Shown one piece after another: positions 6,963 to 39,661 of a DNA stretch of 39,661 nt. This DNA is from Chloroflexi bacterium HGW-Chloroflexi-1. Its GTDB lineage: Bacteria; Chloroflexota; Anaerolineae; CG2-30-64-16. The stretch is taken from positions 1 to 39,661 of the forward strand of contig PHCA01000019.1 in assembly GCA_002842085.1 (NCBI GenBank). Direction: 5' to 3'. Position numbers and translations under genes: made by a program. The notes beneath the pieces are model-generated. The model was not told the DNA's origin and did no database searches. It worked only from the letters and a program-made list of their open reading frames with translations. Within the stretch, counting starts at the first letter, position 1. Every line of letters starts with the position of its first letter.

Positions 6963-9155
6963 TCAGGGTAACGAATTCGGCGCACCCGTGACCGGCGTCG
7001 ACCGCTCGGCGTAGCGCGGGGTCAGGGCCCCGACGAGCGCTTCCAGGCAACGCAACACCTCCACCAGCCGCAACCCGTCCGGGCGCCGGACCACGATTTG
7101 GCTGCTGCATGGCAGCAGGATCTCCCCGGTCAGATCGGCCGCGGTCACCAGCGCCGCCGGCACCTCCGCCAGCGCCGGATCGCGGCGCATCTCCCGCAGC
7201 ATCTGGAGGCCGTCCATGTCGGGCATGACCAGGTCGAGCAGCGCCAGGTCCGGTTTCCGGGCGCGCATCTGCGCCAGGCCGGCGGCGGCGGCGTAGGCCT
7301 GCCGGATAGCCAGGCCGGCCACGTTGGCTTTGAGCGTGCGTTCGACCAACTGGCAGAAGCCGCGATCGTCGTCCACCACCAGCACGTCACGCACGTCTCC
7401 CAGCCGGCCGATCACACCCAGCAGGTCGGCTGCGGAGACCGGCTTGGTCAGGTAAGCGGCCAGGTTCTGCTCGGCAGCCAGCCAGGCCCGGCTGGGCAGC
7501 GAACACTCGATGCAGGGCACAGACAGGGCGGGCAGGCCGTTCGCGGCCGGTTGACTGACCGGCGCGGCGGCGGCGCGCGGCGGCGCGTTCAGGATCACCG
7601 CGCGCGGGTGGCGCAACAGGATCTCGTCGGCCAGCCGCCCTGCATCCGCCACCGGCGCCACCTCATAGCCCGGCATATGCCGGGCGACCAGGTCGGCGAC
7701 CGCGGGGTCCGGGTCAACGACCAGGAGCGACATGGCGGGCTCGGAGGCCGGTTGCGCGATGGGCTGGGTTGCCGGCAACCAGGAAACCGGCACGTATTGC
7801 CCGGGGATCGGCAGCGTAAAGGTGAAGGTCGAGCCGTGGCCCACTTCGCTCTCGGCCCAGATGCGGCCATCGTGAGCCTGGACGAAGTGCTGACAGATCG
7901 CCAGCCCCAGCCCGGCCCCCGCGGGCTTCCGGCTCGACGAGAGGGCCACCTGGTAAAACTCTTCGAAGATGTGCGCCAGCTCCTCGGCCGGGATGCCGGG
8001 GCCGGTGTCGCTGACGCTGATCTGTACCTCGCCGTCGGCCTGTCGAGCCGCGACGCGCACCGCGCCCCGCTCGGTGAAGCGTGCGGCGTTGTTCACCAGA
8101 TTGAGCAACACCTGGCGCATGCGCGTCCGGTCAATTTCGAGCGCGGGCAACGCGTCATCGATCGCCAGTTCCAGGCGCACAGGCCGCTCGCGGAAGAGGT
8201 CGCCGACGATTTCCACGGTATCCCGCAGAAACGGCTCCAGCGGCGTCAGCTCACGTTCCAGCGTGAAGCCCACCATCTCGAAGCGCGAGAGGTCCAACAC
8301 GTCGTTGATCATGTCCAGCAGGTGGTGACTGCTACGGTAGATCTGGTAGACGTCCTGGCGTAGCGCCGGCGGCCAGGTCATGTCGCCGTAGACTTCGGGC
8401 GACAGGTGCATCAGTTCGCTGAAGCCCAGGATCAGGTTGAGGGGCGTGCGCAGCTCGTGGCTGACGTTGGCCGCAAAGCGCTCCTTCATGTACTGCGCTT
8501 TCTCCGCCTGCCGGCGGGCGACGACCAACGCGCGCTGGGTGCGCAGGAGGATCGAGTTCGCCAGGTCGAGCGATTTGAGCGTGCGGGCCAACTCACCCTG
8601 GCGATCGCGCGCCAATTCGAGGAGGCGGTTGGCTTCCTGTTGCATGTTCCAGGCCCACTTCAACGCGATGTTCTGGGTGTCGGTCGCCAGCCACGCCAGT
8701 GTCAGGCCGAAGGCGAGCGCGGGGAGCAGTTCCGGCAGCGGGTAGGCGCGTGCGCCGCTGTGCGTCAGCCAGGTGGCCAGCACCGCGACGATGCCCCCGG
8801 ACGCCAAGGCGCCGCCCCAGACCAGCATGGCCGCGAGAAACATCAGCGTGGCGCCCAGGAACGGAATCCAGGCCGCGCTGAAGGTCCACATGGCCGCCAG
8901 CAACGCCGCGGTCAGCCCCCAGAGCAACAAATGGCGCGCCAGAAAGGGCCGCTTCTGATTCAGCTTGTACACGGCCCCCCCCAGCCCAACCAGCAACGCC
9001 GGCAGGAGGAAAGCCCTGAGCGGCAAGGAGTATAAAGGCAGGAAAGCCGACATGGTCAGGCTACCGCCCAGCAGCAGAAAGAGCGCCACGCGCGTCGTCA
9101 GTTGGCTGCGCAGCTCTTCGAGATTGACATCCGGACCGGATTTTAACGCTGTCAT
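6963..9155 (-). CDS. Hybrid sensor histidine kinase with two C-terminal receiver domains
   Basis: N-terminal TM segments; ERFAANVSHELRTPLNLILGFSELM (H box), LVNNAARFT, DTGPGIP, GAGLGLAICQ; two receiver domains; internal ATG at 9155 preferred over 9188, which lies in a repeat. Confidence 0.85.
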   Translation of the reverse strand: MTALKSGPDVNLEELRSQLTTRVALFLLLGGSLTMSAFLPLYSLPLRAFLLPALLVGLGGAVYKLNQKRPFLARHLLLWGLTAALLAAMWTFSAAWIPFLGATLMFLAAMLVWGGALASGGIVAVLATWLTHSGARAYPLPELLPALAFGLTLAWLATDTQNIALKWAWNMQQEANRLLELARDRQGELARTLKSLDLANSILLRTQRALVVARRQAEKAQYMKERFAANVSHELRTPLNLILGFSELMHLSPEVYGDMTWPPALRQDVYQIYRSSHHLLDMINDVLDLSRFEMVGFTLERELTPLEPFLRDTVEIVGDLFRERPVRLELAIDDALPALEIDRTRMRQVLLNLVNNAARFTERGAVRVAARQADGEVQISVSDTGPGIPAEELAHIFEEFYQVALSSSRKPAGAGLGLAICQHFVQAHDGRIWAESEVGHGSTFTFTLPIPGQYVPVSWLPATQPIAQPASEPAMSLLVVDPDPAVADLVARHMPGYEVAPVADAGRLADEILLRHPRAVILNAPPRAAAAPVSQPAANGLPALSVPCIECSLPSRAWLAAEQNLAAYLTKPVSAADLLGVIGRLGDVRDVLVVDDDRGFCQLVERTLKANVAGLAIRQAYAAAAGLAQMRARKPDLALLDLVMPDMDGLQMLREMRRDPALAEVPAALVTAADLTGEILLPCSSQIVVRRPDGLRLVEVLRCLEALVGALTPRYAERSTPVTGAPNSLP

Positions 9156-13531: not shown

Positions 13532-13619
13532 GCTCGGCTCCTTCGCTGGCAGAATCACCTGTCTGAAAGCCGCCTCCTTCGACTCCGCCCGCGAAAACCA
13601 GCGGGCTCCGCTCAGGATG

Positions 13620-13722
13620 CTCACCTTGTCACCTTGTCACCCTGTCACCAATTTACCAATTTACCAATTTACCAATTTACCAATTTACCCCGTCACCTTG
13701 TCACCCCGTCACCCCGTCACCG
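13620..13722. repeat. Octanucleotide tandem mosaic (GTCACCYY / AATTTACC units)
   Basis: TCACCTTG TCACCTTG TCACCCTG TCACC(AATTTACC)n CCGTCACC...; 8-bp periodicity. Confidence 0.9.
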
Positions 13723-15678
13723 CAGCACCCGCTCATCCCCCACCCGCCGCGTCACCCGCCGCTCGTCCAGGCGCTCCATGATCGCCAGCGCGTACTTGCG
13801 GCTGGTGTCGAACGTGTCCCGCACCTGGGCCACAGTCATGCTACCGTGTCCTTGGATGAACGCCACGACGCCCGCGACGATCTCATCGTAGGTTTCGCGC
13901 AGAAACAGCACATCTTCGCTCAACCGGACCAGGATCCCCTGATGGAGCAACGCACTGACGATCTCAGGACTCGTAACGGTGCTGCTCTCGGCCATCGAGG
14001 GGGGTGTGTAGGGCTGGCGGCGGAAAGCGTCCAGAAGGGCGGTCACCCGAGCCTGCTGCTCGGGGGTAAAAACGATGCGATGGCCCGGCCGGCACAGATA
14101 CTCGCCGGCTTCTTCCAGGATTGTCTCAGCGATGCCGCGCGCGATGAATTCGTTGAAGAGCTTCGCCGGCCACTTGTCCCGACCCTGCAACCGGCTCTTG
14201 AGCTCCTCGCGGGCCACGCCGGGGCGGAGCGGATACTGGGCGTGATATTCGGCTAACACGTCGGCCATGCGTGCCGCCAGGTGATGCCAGCCACCGATGG
14301 AGAGCGCCGGGGTGTGACTGTTGACCAACGGCGGCTGGGCTACGCCCAACGGGAGCACCTGCCCCTTTGCGATCATGGCGGTCAGAGTCACTTCGGCGGT
14401 CGCCGCGTCCAGGCCGCTGCCCTCAACCAAGGTCTTGAACGGGACCGGTTCCATAGTGGCCAGCGCGTGCAGCAACAGGTCTTCCGGCGTGCCGCGGGCC
14501 AACGCTTCCAGTTGGTCCAACACGTCGCGCTGGAAGCGGCGCCAGCGCCGCCGCGGGTACGGATCGACCACCTGGCCGCCCCCGACGGTCACGCTCGGCG
14601 AAGGCTGGCGGATGATGAAACGATCACCGGCTACCAGCGCGACCGGGGACTCCAGGCGCAACTGGACCCAACCGGACCCGCCCGGCGGGATCTCCTCGGC
14701 GTCCAGCAGACGGGTGCGGGCCACCACCTGGGCCGCGCCGCTGAAAAAGTCCACCGCTTGATTGTGTCGGAGCGGCCCCACCGCGCTGTTGGCGACCAAC
14801 CGCAGCCGGACATCCACGAGCCTGGTGCTGCGCAGGGCGCCCGGTCGCGCGACGACCATGCCCCGCGCAAGTTCATCGGGGTGAACACCGGTCAGGTTGA
14901 TGGCCAGCCGGCTGCCCGGCAATCCCGTCTCAACCGCGCGTTTGTGCGTTTGCAGGCCGCGAATGCGCGCCCGTAAACCGCCCGGCACGATCTCGACCTC
15001 ATCGCCGAGCCGAAACTGGCCATCGCTCAGGGTGCCGGTCACCACCGTGCCGAATCCCGCCACGCTGAAGACCCGGTCGATGGGCAAACGGGGTTGGTCG
15101 CGGTCTCGACGCGGCGGCGCCGTGGCGAGCACATCGGCCAGCGCTTGCTTCAACGCCTCCAGGCCTTGCCCGGTGCGCGCGGAAACCGGCACAATGGGCG
15201 CATCGGCCAGGCAAGTGCCGGCCAACGTCTCCAGAAGATCGGCCTCGACCAGATCCAGCCAACCTTCGTCGGTGATCACATCCACCTTGGTCAGCGCGAC
15301 CACCCCGGCCGGCGCCTGGAGCAAGTCCAGGATCGCCAAATGCTCCTCGGTCTGCGGCATCACCCCTTCGTCGGCCGCCACCACGAACAGCGCCGCATCG
15401 ATGCCGCCCACACCGGCCAGCATGTTCTTGATGAAATCGATATGGCCCGGCACATCCACGACCCCCACTGTCGAATCGAGGGGGTTTGCCGCTATCTCGC
15501 CGCCCACCTGCCCACCCGCATCCCGGGCCGGGGGCAACGTCAACCAGGCAAACCCCAGATCGATGGTCATCTCGCGTTCTTTTTCTTCCCGCAACCGATC
15601 GGGGTCGATACCGGTCAGCGCGTGCACCAACGTCGATTTGCCGTGGTCCACATGGCCGGCCGTGCCGATGACACGCAT
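13717..15678 (-). CDS. selB: Selenocysteine-specific translation elongation factor SelB
   Basis: MRVIGTAGHVDHGKSTLVHALTGIDPDRLREEKEREMTIDLGFAWL, VDVPGHIDFIKNMLAG, ALTKVD, C-terminal winged-helix repeats. Confidence 0.92.
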   Translation of the reverse strand: MRVIGTAGHVDHGKSTLVHALTGIDPDRLREEKEREMTIDLGFAWLTLPPARDAGGQVGGEIAANPLDSTVGVVDVPGHIDFIKNMLAGVGGIDAALFVVAADEGVMPQTEEHLAILDLLQAPAGVVALTKVDVITDEGWLDLVEADLLETLAGTCLADAPIVPVSARTGQGLEALKQALADVLATAPPRRDRDQPRLPIDRVFSVAGFGTVVTGTLSDGQFRLGDEVEIVPGGLRARIRGLQTHKRAVETGLPGSRLAINLTGVHPDELARGMVVARPGALRSTRLVDVRLRLVANSAVGPLRHNQAVDFFSGAAQVVARTRLLDAEEIPPGGSGWVQLRLESPVALVAGDRFIIRQPSPSVTVGGGQVVDPYPRRRWRRFQRDVLDQLEALARGTPEDLLLHALATMEPVPFKTLVEGSGLDAATAEVTLTAMIAKGQVLPLGVAQPPLVNSHTPALSIGGWHHLAARMADVLAEYHAQYPLRPGVAREELKSRLQGRDKWPAKLFNEFIARGIAETILEEAGEYLCRPGHRIVFTPEQQARVTALLDAFRRQPYTPPSMAESSTVTSPEIVSALLHQGILVRLSEDVLFLRETYDEIVAGVVAFIQGHGSMTVAQVRDTFDTSRKYALAIMERLDERRVTRRVGDERVLR

Positions 15679-17890: not shown

Positions 17891-18003
17891 GTATCTTCTC
17901 AATAGTTCGGGGGGCGTGCTTGCTGTGGCCGGTCTCCTGACCGTGCCACCCGTGGCACGGTCAGGAGACCGGCCACAGCATCCCCAGATTATTGAGATGA
18001 TAC
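17891..18003. mobile_element. Repeat family A, copy A2
   Basis: GTATCTTCTCAATAGTTCGGGG ... CCCCAGATTATTGAGATGATAC; flanks TCGCGACT / TCGCGACA. Confidence 0.85.
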
Positions 18004-24374: not shown

Positions 24375-24402
24375 GTGAACCTCCGAACCAGGGCTATACT
24401 TG

Positions 24403-24469
24403 ACAAGGTGACAGGGTGACAAGTAGACAAGGAAACAAGTAGACAAGGAAACAAGTAGACAAGGTGAAA
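24403..24469. repeat. Octanucleotide tandem mosaic
   Basis: TGACAAGGTGACAGGGTGACAAGTAGACAAGGAAACAAGTAGACAAGG... Confidence 0.85.
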
Positions 24470-24474
24470 AAACC

Positions 24475-24682
24475 GTAACTACTCAGCCTGTCATTGCGAG
24501 GGCCTCGCTGTGGCGAGGGCCTCGCTGTGGCGAGGAGCGTAGTTTGCGGTTGCGAGGCACGGAGCAAAGCAATCTCCGCCATGATGGGGATTGCGGCAAT
24601 CCCGATTGCGGCAATCCCGATTGCGGCAATCAGAGATTGCTTCGCAAACTGCGCTCGCAATGACAGAGGGCTGAGTAGTTAC
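24475..24682. mobile_element. Repeat family B, full copy carrying CATTGCGAG/GCAATC cargo
   Basis: GTAACTACTCAGCCTGTCATTGCGAG ... CTCGCAATGACAGAGGGCTGAGTAGTTAC; flanks AAAAAACC / AAAAAACG. Confidence 0.85.
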
Positions 24683-24689
24683 AAAAAAC

Positions 24690-24812
24690 GTAACTGCTCA
24701 GCCACCCTTGCGAAGATTGCGAATAGCCTGACCGATAGCGCGATTCTTGGCTGACGAGGGCACTTCCGGCCTGAAATCTGCTCACAAACCTTCGCAAGGG
24801 TTCTATGCCTGA
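24690..24812. mobile_element. Repeat family B copy carrying CCTTGCGAAGG-type cargo
   Basis: GTAACTGCTCAGCCACCCTTGCGAAG ... AACCTTCGCAAGGGTTCTATGCCTGA; right terminus diverged. Confidence 0.8.
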
Positions 24813-25653: not shown

Positions 25654-25750
25654 GTATCTTCTCAATTTTTCGGGGAATCGCTCGCTGTGGCCGGTCTCCT
25701 GACCGAGCCACCGTGGCTCGGTCAGGAGACCGGCCACAGCCACCCCGGAT
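25654..25750. mobile_element. Repeat family A, copy A6, right end truncated
   Basis: GTATCTTCTCAATTTTTCGGGGAATCGCTCGCTGTGGCCGGTCTCCTGACCGAGCCACCGTGGCTCGG...CACAGCCACCCCGGATT. Confidence 0.8.
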
Positions 25751-25767
25751 TTGGGCCAAATTCCTTA

Positions 25768-28829: not shown

Positions 28830-29159
28830 GTGTCTTCTCAATAGTTCGGGGCGTGCTCGCTGTGGCCGGTCTCCTGACCGTGCCACGGGTGGCACGGTCA
28901 GGAGACCGGCCACAGCGTCCCCAGATTGGAGACCGGCCACAGCATCCCCAGATTGGAGACCGGCCACAGCATCCCCAGATTGGAGACCGGCCACAGCGTC
29001 CCCAGATTGGAGACCGGCCACAGCATCCCCAGATTGGAGACCGGCCACAGCATCCGGGGCGTTCAACGTAGACCTGTCAGGTTTTTGTTGCGCATCGCAC
29101 AGGACGCCCAGATATGGCCAGAAACCTGACCGGTCTCCCCCGAGTTATTGAGATGATAC
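28830..29159. mobile_element. Repeat family A, 330-bp expanded copy A7 with perfect 8-bp flanking duplication
   Basis: GTGTCTTCTCAATAGTTCGGGG ... CCCCGAGTTATTGAGATGATAC flanked by GAAAAAAG on both sides (28822-28829, 29160-29167). Confidence 0.9.
28901..29055 (+). repeat. 27-bp tandem repeat, 5 full units plus a partial, inside A7
   Basis: GGAGACCGGCCACAGCRTCCCCAGATT repeated. Confidence 0.97.
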
Positions 29160-30217: not shown

Positions 30218-30604
30218 GGCGGAGCGCCTTCGCTGGCCTGATCGTGATACCGAACGCTCCAACCAAAGCCCTCCTCTGCAGCCAGACATCACCGCGTTTA
30301 CAAGCCTTTCTCCACGAACCGGTTGCCCGTCGAAGGGGCCGTGCGGCCGTCCGCGACCGGTTCGCCTGGGGGAATGATAGTCAGCCTGGCAGTTCATCTG
30401 ATGCGTTGCAGATGTTGGACTATTCTACAATATTATTTCTGCTTTGTCAACTTTTTTTTAGGGCAAATCGACAGATTCACTCTACTTCTACGGCCATACC
30501 TCGTCACGAACACACCGATATCCGAAAACAAGTACCGAAATGCGCACCCGCACCCCCTCAGGACCATCGCTTTGACAGAACCGCAGTCCTGAGCTATTCT
30601 ATAC

Positions 30605-30706
30605 TTGACAAGGTGACAGGGTGACAGGGTAAATTGGTAAATTGGTGACGGGGTGACGGGGTGACGGGGTGACGGGGTGACGGGGTGAAAAGGTGACAAG
30701 GTGAAA
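30605..30706. repeat. Octanucleotide tandem mosaic
   Basis: TTGACAAGGTGACAGGGTGACAGGGTAAATTGG...(GGTGACGG)n...GGTGACAAGGTGAAAAAAC. Confidence 0.9.
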
Positions 30707-31997: not shown

Positions 31998-32152
31998 GAT
32001 TGGTAGATTGGTAGATTGGTGACTGGGCCGGTCACGCGTTACCTCGTCACCCTGTCACCCTGTCTACTTGTCTACTTGTCTACTTGTCTACTTGCCTACT
32101 TGTCTACTTGTCACCCTGTCACCCTGTCACCCTGTCACCCTGTCACCTTCTC
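31998..32152. repeat. Octanucleotide tandem mosaic overlapping the methyltransferase 3' end
   Basis: TAGATTGG x3; (GTCACCCT)n(GTCTACTT)n(GTCACCCT)n. Confidence 0.9.
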
Positions 32153-32920
32153 CGCGATCGCGATCACCGACGTGCCCACCGGCAGGTTCACGCGGCGCAA
32201 CAACGCCACCTCCAGCTTGCCCACCAGCGTCAGCACGGCGTTGAGCACAGGCGGCGTGGGCTCCATCTCCACCTGGTAGGCGTCCTCGTCGAAATGTGGG
32301 GACGCCAGTTTCGGCTCGGCGCGGCCACGGCGCAACACGATCAGCGCGGCGGCCAGCGGGAACACGAAGAAGTTGTTGTAGGAGATGCGCAACACCCTGA
32401 ACCCGTGCTGCGCCAGCTTCGCCTGCAACCCCGCCGCGGTGTAGCGCCGCTGATGCATGTTGATAACGTCGTTCTGGCTCCAGAGAAACTTGAACGCCGG
32501 CGCCGTAACCAACAGCCTGCCCCCCGGTCTCCCGGTCACCGGGTCCGGGCCGCGCAAAACCCGCCGGCACTCCTCGAAGACTTGATCTTCGCCGGGCACA
32601 TGCTCCACCGTATCCAACAACGCGACCAGATCGAACTCTTCATCCCCGAAGGGCAGGTCATCGGCCGCGCCCTGATACGCCTCCAGCCCTCGTTCGCGAG
32701 CGATCGCCAGGGGCTTGGGGTTGTTGTCCACGCCGACCACCTGGCCGTAATGGCGCAAGTGATGGGTCATGTTGGCCGCGCCGCATCCCACGTCCAGGAC
32801 GCGGCGATCCTTGCCTGGCCCAACGTAGCGATCCAGATAGGCCAGGATGATCCGGGTCCGGGTGGCAAACCACCAGTGTTTATCTTCTTCCAACACAGTC
32901 AACATCGGGGTTGAAGTCAT
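32135..32920 (-). CDS. Class I SAM-dependent methyltransferase
   Basis: RVLDVGCGAANMTHHL, DEEFDLVALLDTVEHV; ATG at 32920 preceded by GGAG. Confidence 0.88.
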   Translation of the reverse strand: MTSTPMLTVLEEDKHWWFATRTRIILAYLDRYVGPGKDRRVLDVGCGAANMTHHLRHYGQVVGVDNNPKPLAIARERGLEAYQGAADDLPFGDEEFDLVALLDTVEHVPGEDQVFEECRRVLRGPDPVTGRPGGRLLVTAPAFKFLWSQNDVINMHQRRYTAAGLQAKLAQHGFRVLRISYNNFFVFPLAAALIVLRRGRAEPKLASPHFDEDAYQVEMEPTPPVLNAVLTLVGKLEVALLRRVNLPVGTSVIAIAEKVTG

Positions 32921-33068: not shown

Positions 33069-33101
33069 GTCCCGCCGTCATCGTGTCACCGTGTCACCCT
33101 A

Positions 33102-34277
33102 TCACCTTGTCAGCAGTATCTTCGCCGCGGCCAAGACGCGTTCGGGCGAGATCGCGGCCATGCATTGATGCTGAGCCAGCACGTCCGCCGGCCAATCCAG
33201 CCGGTTGCACGGCGCGCAGACCCAGTCAGTGGCCAGGACGACGTGCCGGGTCGGGTCACCCCACGGCCCGAATTTCGCGTGCGCCACCGGGCCGTACAGG
33301 TGCACTGTAGGCGCGCCCATCGCCACCGCCAGGTGCAATGGGCCGCTATCCGAGCCCAAGACCAGGGCGCAACGGGCCAGCAGGGCGGCCAACTGGCCCA
33401 GGGTAGTCTCGCCAGCGCTGTCCCAGGCCGGCTGGCGCAGCGCCTTGCTGAGGGCCTGGGTCAACGGCCGTTCGCTCGCGCTCCCGGTAAGCAAGATCTG
33501 CGCGTCGAACGCCGCGGTCAAGCCATTGGCGACCGCGGCCCACGCGTCAACCGGCCACTGCTTGACCGGAGCGCCAGCGCCGGGATGGATCGCTATCAGC
33601 GGCCGGGCGGGCTCGACGCCGCGAGCTACGAGCCAATCCGCGGCCCACGCCCGCTCCTCGGGGGCCACGGCATAGCGCGTCGGCCCCATCCGCCGATCCG
33701 GGCCGGGGACCAACGCGGCCACCAGCGCGGCATTCTGCTCGACCTCATGTCGGTCGGCGCGATAGGGCGCCCCCTGCGTGAGAAACGGCCGGGTCTCAGG
33801 CCAGGCGTAGCCGACACGCCGGGGGATGCCGGCGGCGGCCACCAGCCAGGCGCCCCACCAATGATCGAAACGGAAAACCACGGCCGTATCGTACTCGCCC
33901 GCGCGCAGCGCCCGAGCCGTCTCGAAAAGCACGCGATACGGGGTCAGCAGGCCAGTTTTGGGCGTGCGCTCGAAGCCGGGGAAACGGCAGATTTCCACCG
34001 CGTCCAGGTCCGGATTGCCTCGGACCACATCACGGCCCCCCGGTCCCGCCAGCAGCGTGAGGCGAGCGCCGGGCAACGCCTCACGCAGGGCGTGCAATGC
34101 CGGTGTCAAAAACAACATGTCGCCCAGGTGATCCGGGCGGATGAGCAAGATGTTCCGCGGCGCAGTCACCAGGCCTGGCCTGGGATAGGACCTGCCGATC
34201 AAGCGCAGCAACGCCAAACGGATGCCTTCCCGGCGCGTGCGCGTTTGCGGACCTGGCGGCGAGGGGGCTTGCATCAC
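33102..34277 (-). CDS. Glycosyltransferase family 9 (heptosyltransferase-like)
   Basis: NILLIRPDHLGDMLFLTPALHALREALPGARLTLLAG; IHPGAGAPVKQWP; LVLGSDSGPLHLAVAMGAPTVHLYGP. Confidence 0.92.
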   Translation of the reverse strand: MMQAPSPPGPQTRTRREGIRLALLRLIGRSYPRPGLVTAPRNILLIRPDHLGDMLFLTPALHALREALPGARLTLLAGPGGRDVVRGNPDLDAVEICRFPGFERTPKTGLLTPYRVLFETARALRAGEYDTAVVFRFDHWWGAWLVAAAGIPRRVGYAWPETRPFLTQGAPYRADRHEVEQNAALVAALVPGPDRRMGPTRYAVAPEERAWAADWLVARGVEPARPLIAIHPGAGAPVKQWPVDAWAAVANGLTAAFDAQILLTGSASERPLTQALSKALRQPAWDSAGETTLGQLAALLARCALVLGSDSGPLHLAVAMGAPTVHLYGPVAHAKFGPWGDPTRHVVLATDWVCAPCNRLDWPADVLAQHQCMAAISPERVLAAAKILLTR

Positions 34278-35582: not shown

Positions 35583-35693
35583 GTATCTTCTCAATAGTGC
35601 GAGGCGTGCTCGCTGTGGCCGGTCTCCTGACCGTGCCACGGGTGGCACGGTCAGGAGACCGGCCACAGCATCCCCAGATTATTGAGATGATAC
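35583..35693. mobile_element. Repeat family A, copy A9
   Basis: GTATCTTCTCAATAGTGCG...CCCCAGATTATTGAGATGATAC; flanks GGAACTTA / GAAACTTA. Confidence 0.85.
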
Positions 35694-38102: not shown

Positions 38103-38723
38103 TTGGACGCACCGGGCGGGGCGCGCAACGTGCGCGGCTACATCGGGCTTTCGTTGGTCTGGCTGGCCATTCTGGGCTCGGTCCTGTGGCTCACCCGCAG
38201 GCCATCCGCACAACCGATCGAGATTCTGCCGCCCCCCACAGCACTGCCCACCGCGACGCCGGCCGCCAGCCCCACCCCGAGCCCGCTCCGCGTCGACGTG
38301 GCTGGGGCCGTGCGCGCCCCGGGCGTCTACACCCTCCCCCCCTGGAGCATCGTCGCCGACGCCATCGCGGCCGCCGGCGGCCCGGCCGAGGATGCCGCCC
38401 TGGATCGCATCAACAAGGCGGTCGCGCTCCAGGACGGCGCCCAGGTCTACGTGCCCCATGTCGCAGAGTCAGCACCCCCTCCACCAGTGAACCCGGCGCC
38501 GCAGGCGCCGGCCTCCGCACCGGCAACCGCAGGAACCGGCCCGGTGGTCAACATCAACACCGCCACCGCGGCGGAGCTGGACACGTTACCGGGTATCGGC
38601 CCGGCCATGGCCCAGCGCATCATCGAAGGCCGGCCCTACGGGGCCATCGAGGAGATCATGCGCGTCAAAGGCATCGGCCAGGCCACGTTCGACAAACTCA
38701 AGGATTGCATCACGGTGCAATGA
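38103..38723 (+). CDS. comEA: ComEA-like helix-hairpin-helix protein with SLBB-like domain
   Basis: N-terminal TM; VDVAGAVRAPGVYTLPPWSIVADAIAAAGG; VVNINTATAAELDTLPGIGPAMAQRIIEGRPYGAIEEIMRVKGIGQATFDKLK; TTG start. Confidence 0.85.
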   Translation: MDAPGGARNVRGYIGLSLVWLAILGSVLWLTRRPSAQPIEILPPPTALPTATPAASPTPSPLRVDVAGAVRAPGVYTLPPWSIVADAIAAAGGPAEDAALDRINKAVALQDGAQVYVPHVAESAPPPPVNPAPQAPASAPATAGTGPVVNINTATAAELDTLPGIGPAMAQRIIEGRPYGAIEEIMRVKGIGQATFDKLKDCITVQ

Positions 38724-38814
38724 GTTGGCTATTTGTGTTATCGTTTTGAGAGAAATAGTAAACCCGATCACTGGCAAATCGAGCGGGATGCGCCAGTATA
38801 AGGCCAGATTCTTC

Positions 38815-38902
38815 GTAACTACCCAGCCGGGGGGGGCCGGGGGGGCCGGGGGGGCGGTCAGGCGCTGCGGAGGCCATTTTCACTGCCTGTCTGGGTAGTT
38901 AC
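38815..38902. mobile_element. Repeat family B, G-tract-bearing copy with perfect 8-bp flanking duplication
   Basis: GTAACTACCCAG...CTGGGTAGTTAC flanked by GATTCTTC on both sides (38807-38814, 38903-38910). Confidence 0.9.
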
Positions 38903-38923
38903 GATTCTTCCTCCTCCTTGGCG

Positions 38924-39530: not shown

Positions 39531-39582
39531 CGCGCCCTCCTTTTTCTCATCCCAGCGCCCGCGCAGTATATTTCGGGAAACC

Positions 39583-39661
39583 GTAACTACTCAGCCCTCT
39601 GTCATTGCGAGCGCAGTTTGCGAAGCAATCGAGATTGCCGCAATCGGGATTGCCGCAATCG
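39583..39661. mobile_element. Repeat family B copy with CATTGCGAG cargo, runs off window
   Basis: GTAACTACTCAGCCCTCTGTCATTGCGAGCGCAGTTTGCGAAGCAATCGAGATTGCCGCAATCGGGATTGCCGCAATCG. Confidence 0.8.

What the first reader, a model, noticed from the sequence alone, without database searches (positions are those of the whole stretch)
38807..38910. Family B element: 12-bp perfect TIRs, perfect 8-bp TSD and a G-quadruplex-like interior
GTAACTACCCAG...CTGGGTAGTTAC (88 bp) is flanked by GATTCTTC on both sides. The interior is CCGGGGGGGGCCGGGGGGGCCGGGGGGGCGG, three G7-8 tracts plus a shorter GG, a strong candidate G4 and replication/transcription block. It lies between convergent comEA and the nitroreductase gene. 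The same termini bound other elements with unrelated interiors (24475, 24690, 18721, 39583).
Basis: partly seen in the sequence, partly recalled or inferred. Interest (0 to 1): 0.78.

Follow-up and report, generated by a model that had tools for sequence, protein, structure and literature searches.

The report
Tiny IS66-type jumping element, G-rich core
This 88-bp sequence is a very small, gene-less jumping element that borrows the ends of a known class of bacterial transposon (IS66 family); the same site is still empty in a sister species, and its striking run of Gs looks like a one-off rearrangement, not a conserved working part.

Summary
38815-38902 is an 88-bp element with perfect 12-bp inverted ends (GTAACTACCCAG), flanked by a perfect 8-bp duplication (GATTCTTC).

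It is a mobile element. A sister species of the same genus (Anaerolineae CG2_30_64_16, Chloroflexota) has the same comEA-nitroreductase spacer with one GATTCTTC and no element. Two further family members within 8 kb are also absent there.

The host genome carries 211 exact copies of the terminal motif. Of 41 candidate pairs, 27 have a perfect direct repeat of exactly 8 bp. Single-ORF IS66-family (ISBst12-like) transposons elsewhere in the class have the same ends and 8-bp duplications, and published ISDge4, which was seen to transpose, has nearly the same ends. So family B is a set of non-autonomous IS66/ISBst12-type MITEs. No IS66 transposase was found in the host draft.

The G-quadruplex reading is only partly supported. 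This copy has the highest predicted G4 score in 305 kb sampled, but in most siblings with G-tracts these lie in a C-rich/G-rich hairpin. The G-only core looks like an internal deletion product. Interiors vary partly because elements insert into each other and then recombine at shared ends. Known kind, new member; low to modest interest.

The parts
38807..38814 (.). left copy of the 8-bp target-site duplication GATTCTTC
   Evidence: single copy at the empty site of the sister genome
38815..38902 (+). 88-bp non-autonomous IS66/ISBst12-type MITE (family B, G-rich subtype)
38815..38826 (+). left terminal inverted repeat GTAACTACCCAG
38829..38857 (+). G tracts G8-CC-G7-CC-G7-C-GG; predicted G-quadruplex on the + strand (G4Hunter 3.04)
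   Evidence: run lengths not verified against reads
38856..38890 (+). conserved right-hand module of the G-rich subtype, GGTCAGGCGCTGCGGAGGCCATTTTCACTGCCTG(T/C)
   Evidence: shared with siblings L072, L073, L074, L076 and the L075/L035 chimera
38891..38902 (-). right terminal inverted repeat (reverse complement of GTAACTACCCAG)
38903..38910 (.). right copy of the 8-bp target-site duplication GATTCTTC
38103..38723 (+). comEA-like helix-hairpin-helix gene, left neighbour (start codon uncertain)
   Evidence: TIGR01259 E 7.8e-23, below that model's cut-off; orthologue 84% identical in L195
39018..39530 (-). nitroreductase-family gene, right neighbour, convergent
   Evidence: nitroreductase-family models, all below cut-off; orthologue in L195
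38924..38962 (.). 15-bp stem hairpin (CACGAACGCCGGGGC-9nt-GCCCCGGCGTTCGTG) between the convergent genes; a related hairpin lies at the sister's empty site
   Evidence: sequence; terminator role inferred
24475..24682 (+). second two-ended family B element (CATTGCGAG interior), TSD AAAAAACC/AAAAAACG (7/8)
39575..39661 (+). TSD GGGAAACC and left part of a third family B element (whole element is C97:39583-39855, TSD 8/8; holds an assembly gap of Ns)
   Evidence: empty site in sister genome
18721..18834 (+). one-ended, truncated family B copy (CCACCCTTGCGAAGG interior)
24690..24810 (+). one-ended, truncated family B copy, same interior class as 18721

Best explanation
[quoted passage not shown] It carries only the ends recognised by an IS66-family (ISBst12-group, single-ORF) transposase and is moved in trans by such a transposase, which makes an 8-bp staggered cut and so an 8-bp duplication. 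It inserted between the convergent comEA and nitroreductase genes after the host split from its sister species. The G-tract core arose inside a MITE subtype whose interior is normally a C-rich/G-rich hairpin followed by a conserved 35-bp module; loss of the C-rich arm left only the G tracts. Interiors diversify because elements insert into one another and then recombine at the shared ends. Shown: ends, TSDs, empty sites, IS66 elements with the same ends and TSD length, and one chimera with a clear footprint. Inferred: that an IS66 transposase did the moving in this lineage, and the order of deletion events.
For: Perfect TIR and TSD at the stated place. 211 exact terminal motifs in the genome, 0 for the reversed control. 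27 of 41 candidate pairs have a perfect direct repeat of 8 bp; none at 5-7 or 9-12 bp; flanks swapped between pairs give 2 of 1640. Empty site in the congeneric genome for this copy (GGCCAGATTCTTCCTCC, one GATTCTTC), for the 39583 copy (one GGGAAACC) and for the C97:46032 copy. IS66 transposase elements (NF033517 about 305 bits, cut-off 180) with the same or near-same ends: L262 GTAACTACTCAGG with TSD AAGGGATT; L264 and L266 GTAACTACTAAG with TSD 8/8; L267, L277 and L278 near-same ends with TSD 8/8; L161 and L271 GTAACTGCTCAG without TSD. Published ISDge4 (IS66/ISBst12) has ends GTGACTACTCAGCA/GTAACTGCTCAGCA, an 8-bp repeat and observed transposition (PMC12898284). Chimera C75:12002-12272: element X sits in element Y next to AGGCAGGC, and the outer end carries Y's ACCC variant.
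Against: No IS66 transposase in the host draft (97.9% complete) or in the sister draft (75%), by PF03050 and NF033517 or by the L161 protein at E 1e-20. Similarity between these MITEs and any autonomous element is limited to about 12-14 terminal bases, so no specific parent was found. About one third of candidate pairs lack a perfect TSD.
Confidence: 0.9

Rival explanations
1. The element is kept for its G-quadruplex: the three G7-8 tracts fold on one strand and pause polymerases or end transcription between the convergent genes.
For: Highest G4Hunter score (3.04) in a 305-kb sample. Allowing G-quadruplexes lowers the predicted DNA folding energy of the + strand from -21.6 to -46.4 kcal/mol.
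Against: The feature is not conserved in the subtype: L076 and L086 lack comparable G tracts and L074 has a single G6 tract; in L072 and L079 the fold gains nothing from quadruplexes and in L073 only about 1 kcal/mol, because the G tracts pair with C tracts. A hairpin already lies between the convergent genes, and a related one is at the sister's empty site. The insertion is lineage-specific.
Confidence: 0.07
2. The elements are moved by a transposase of another family that shares the GTAACT...CAG ends, for example one of the DDE_Tnp_1 (IS4/IS1634/IS5-like) transposases in the genome.
For: The host has 4 DDE_Tnp_1 matches and no IS66 match.
Against: None of those four loci has GTAACTACTCAG-like ends around the gene, whereas six IS66 elements in the class have near-same or identical ends plus the 8-bp duplication.
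Confidence: 0.06
3. The long G runs are an assembly or sequencing artefact.
For: Draft assembly with 419 contigs; G7-8 homopolymers are error-prone; another family B copy contains an assembly gap.
Against: Independent siblings on other contigs have G6-G7 tracts in the same place and order (L072, L073, L075, L078, L079). At most the exact counts are uncertain, and the element does not depend on them.
Confidence: 0.04

Closest known systems
IS66 family, ISBst12 group (example ISDge4, PMC12898284)
   Same: Ends GTGACTACTCAG/GTAACTGCTCAG against GTAACTACCCAG here; 8-bp target duplication
   Different: ISDge4 is autonomous, with a 449-aa transposase; this element is 88 bp with no gene, and shares only the terminal bases
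Prokaryotic MITEs (review PMC10969869; example MITEAba12, PMC6382973)
   Same: Short, non-coding, paired TIRs, TSD, many copies, moved in trans (inferred)
   Different: Parent family here is IS66/ISBst12; the MITE review does not mention IS66, and the papers I could search yielded no IS66-derived MITE family. Several unrelated interiors share one pair of ends
G4-forming repeats of Xanthomonas and Nostoc (PMC4692102)
   Same: Intergenic G-rich sequence predicted to form a quadruplex
   Different: Those are short tandem repeats that the authors generally did not find with mobile elements; here the G tracts sit inside a MITE and are not conserved between copies

Membership tests
MITE (non-autonomous DNA transposon) | terminal inverted repeats, short, no transposase gene | tested here: met
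   12/12-bp TIR, 88 bp, too short for a gene
MITE (non-autonomous DNA transposon) | target-site duplication of constant length | tested here: met
   8 bp at this copy; 27 of 41 pairs 8/8, no perfect repeat of 5-7 or 9-12 bp
MITE (non-autonomous DNA transposon) | insertion polymorphism / empty site | tested here: met
   three empty sites in the congeneric genome
MITE (non-autonomous DNA transposon) | multiple dispersed copies | tested here: met
   211 exact terminal motifs in G000; at least 6 siblings of the G-rich subtype
IS66 family, ISBst12 group (parent) | terminal sequence shared with transposase-bearing members | tested here: met
   L262, L161, L271, L264, L266; ISDge4
IS66 family, ISBst12 group (parent) | 8-bp target duplication in transposase-bearing members with these ends | tested here: met
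   L262, L264, L266, L267, L277, L278 8/8
IS66 family, ISBst12 group (parent) | transposase encoded by the element or present in the host genome | tested here: not met
   none in G000 or G001; hence 'derived, non-autonomous', not 'an IS66 element'
IS66 family, ISBst12 group (parent) | mobilisation by an IS66 transposase | not testable with these tools
   needs a transposition assay
G-quadruplex element | G tracts conserved across copies | tested here: not met
   G-only core unique to this copy among siblings examined
G-quadruplex element | folds as a quadruplex | tested here: inconclusive
   prediction only: G4Hunter 3.04, Vienna gquad

The most novel reading that the evidence does not exclude
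A pair of IS66 ends acts as an interchangeable shell: cores of unrelated origin (CATTGCGAG palindromes, CCACCCTTGCGAAGG type, GATAGAACGC type, C/G-rich hairpins) are captured by nested insertion and end-to-end recombination, and spread in a genome with no resident IS66 transposase. One such core has become a strong G-quadruplex that affects the flanking convergent genes.
Probability: 0.08. Interest if true: 0.5.

Novelty: new member of a known kind. Interest (0 to 1): 0.25.

Why it matters
It gives a clean example, with three empty sites in one 8-kb stretch, of IS66/ISBst12-type MITEs expanding in an uncultured Chloroflexota lineage, a parent family for which I found no described MITEs in the papers I could search. 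The chimera shows a simple way in which MITEs with identical ends come to have unrelated interiors. As biology it is otherwise ordinary.

Tried and rejected
Long pairs (350-5000 bp) with TSD in the host, to find a resident autonomous element: none in the sequence held. A 1.6-kb pair of ends in G039:C1:7820-9409: its content is not a transposon. DDE_Tnp_1 transposases of the host as parent: no matching ends. Subterminal similarity between MITEs and IS66 elements as proof of a specific parent: nothing convincing beyond the first 12-14 bases. Rfam: no family at its cut-off near the element. Promoter/terminator scan: nothing inside the element. IS66-MITE literature: none found, which is weak evidence because only open-licence papers are held.

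Full report
Observation. The 88-bp element lies exactly where stated: 38815-38902, with perfect 12-bp ends GTAACTACCCAG and GATTCTTC on both sides. The interior has tracts G8, G7 and G7 and then GG. In the window the terminal motif occurs 9 times (up to 1 mismatch) against 0.17 expected. In the whole genome (4.45 Mb, 419 contigs, 97.9% complete) it occurs 211 times exactly, and its reversed control 0 times.

It is a mobile element. From about half of the genome's copies I formed 41 candidate pairs of ends up to 300 bp apart; 27 carry a perfect 8-bp direct repeat and 32 match at 7 or 8 positions. No pair has a perfect repeat of 5-7 or 9-12 bp, and flanks swapped between pairs match 2 times in 1640. 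Candidate selection admitted a pair with weaker ends if its TSD matched at 7 or more positions, so the proportion is slightly generous; the length signal does not depend on this.

Empty sites. The nitroreductase neighbour led to Anaerolineae bacterium CG2_30_64_16 (L195, 86% protein identity). The pattern search of that record (G397) gives the same places as G001, the same-genus relative. There the comEA-nitroreductase spacer reads GGCCAGATTCTTCCTCCTCC with a single GATTCTTC and no element. The alignments of the two flanks overlap by exactly 8 bp. In the same contig the sites of the 39583-39855 element (one GGGAAACC) and of the C97:46032 element are also empty; at the third, the T run of the target differs by one base between the species.

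Parent family. IS66-family elements in the same class have these ends. L262 has GTAACTACTCAGG at both ends, TSD AAGGGATT and one 490-aa ORF. L264 and L266 have GTAACTACTAAG with perfect TSDs. L267, L277 and L278 have near-same ends with perfect TSDs. L161 and L271 have GTAACTGCTCAG without an intact TSD. The transposases tested (L161, L262, L264, L271) score 303-313 bits with NF033517 (IS66 transposase; cut-off 180). Published ISDge4 of Deinococcus geothermalis, assigned to the ISBst12 group of IS66, has ends GTGACTACTCAGCA/GTAACTGCTCAGCA and an 8-bp direct repeat, and was caught transposing (PMC12898284). The similarity to these MITEs stops after 12-14 bases, so a parent group is identified but no specific parent.

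Missing transposase. No IS66 transposase was found in the host draft or its sister. The host's four DDE_Tnp_1 transposases lack these ends. G039, a single-contig genome, has many GTAACTGCTCAG ends and only one weak sub-threshold IS66 fragment. Either the parent was lost or, in the drafts, it dropped out of the assembly; I cannot tell which.

Interiors. Elements with good TSDs fall into a CATTGCGAG palindrome class (22), a CCACCCTTGCGAAGG class (2) and a linked group of 8 that joins the G-rich subtype to a GATAGAACGC class through one chimera. The chimera (C75:12002-12272; outer TSD AATTCCGC on both sides) is element X inside element Y: after X's right end comes AGGCAGGC, the target that Y's own sequence (GTAACTACCC-AGGCAGGC-AGTG) would supply, and the outer left end carries Y's ACCC variant followed by X's interior. 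This fits insertion followed by recombination between the two left ends, a direct route to shared ends with new interiors.

The G tracts. Siblings L072, L073, L075, L078 and L079 hold the sequence CCCCCAATCCTGGGGGG...CCCCCCAGGATTGGGGGG (with small variations) followed by G6-7 tracts; most also have the module GGTCAGGCGCTGCGGAGGCCATTTTCACTGCC, whereas L076 has the module without the tracts and L074 has it with a single G6. This element lacks the C-rich arm. Its G4Hunter score (3.04) is the highest of a 305-kb sample, and quadruplex-aware DNA folding gains about 25 kcal/mol on the + strand, whereas L072 and L079 gain nothing and L073 about 1 kcal/mol because their G and C tracts pair. L079 reaches the same G4Hunter score locally, but its fold prefers the hairpin. 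A quadruplex is therefore plausible in this copy, but it is not a property of the family, and no evidence of function was found. The C/G-rich hairpin also occurs as a repeat of its own in same-family genomes.

Verdict. A real, recently inserted IS66/ISBst12-type MITE: known kind, new member, with an unusual but probably incidental G-rich core.

Noticed in passing
17893-17990, 25654-25751, 28830-28927, 35583-35680: A second dispersed palindromic family with ends like GTATCTTCTCAA and core GCTGTGGCCGGTCTCCTGACCG. At C97 (L039 about 7402-7524) a copy is flanked by GGTTTTTT on both sides and is absent from the sister genome, so it also looks mobile.
   Followed up: partly
13613-13737, 24391-24466, 30599-30705, 32031-32155, 33070-33114: Arrays of an 8-bp unit (TCACCTTG / TCACCCTG / TCTACTTG) recur in both orientations; a family B element is inserted at the edge of one (24475).
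   Followed up: no
28874-29082: Tandem array of a 27-bp unit (GGAGACCGGCCACAGCATCCCCAGATT) that appears to have grown from one arm of the palindromic family.
   Followed up: no
L231, L240, L232, L258 and other loci of same-family genomes G005 and G006: The C/G-rich hairpin (CCCCCCAATCCTGGGGGG...CCCCCCAGGATTGGGGGG) occurs free-standing, about 26 matches in G005, apart from GTAACT ends; L230 (G023) has it inside GTAACCGTTCAG ends.
   Followed up: partly
G039:C1 (whole contig, 4.69 Mb): Single-contig genome with 61 GTAACTRCYCAGCC motifs but no IS66 transposase above threshold: MITEs with no resident parent.
   Followed up: partly
L035 1003-1273 (C75:12002-12272): Chimeric 271-bp MITE made of two elements, with a shared outer TSD and one internal end.
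   Followed up: yes
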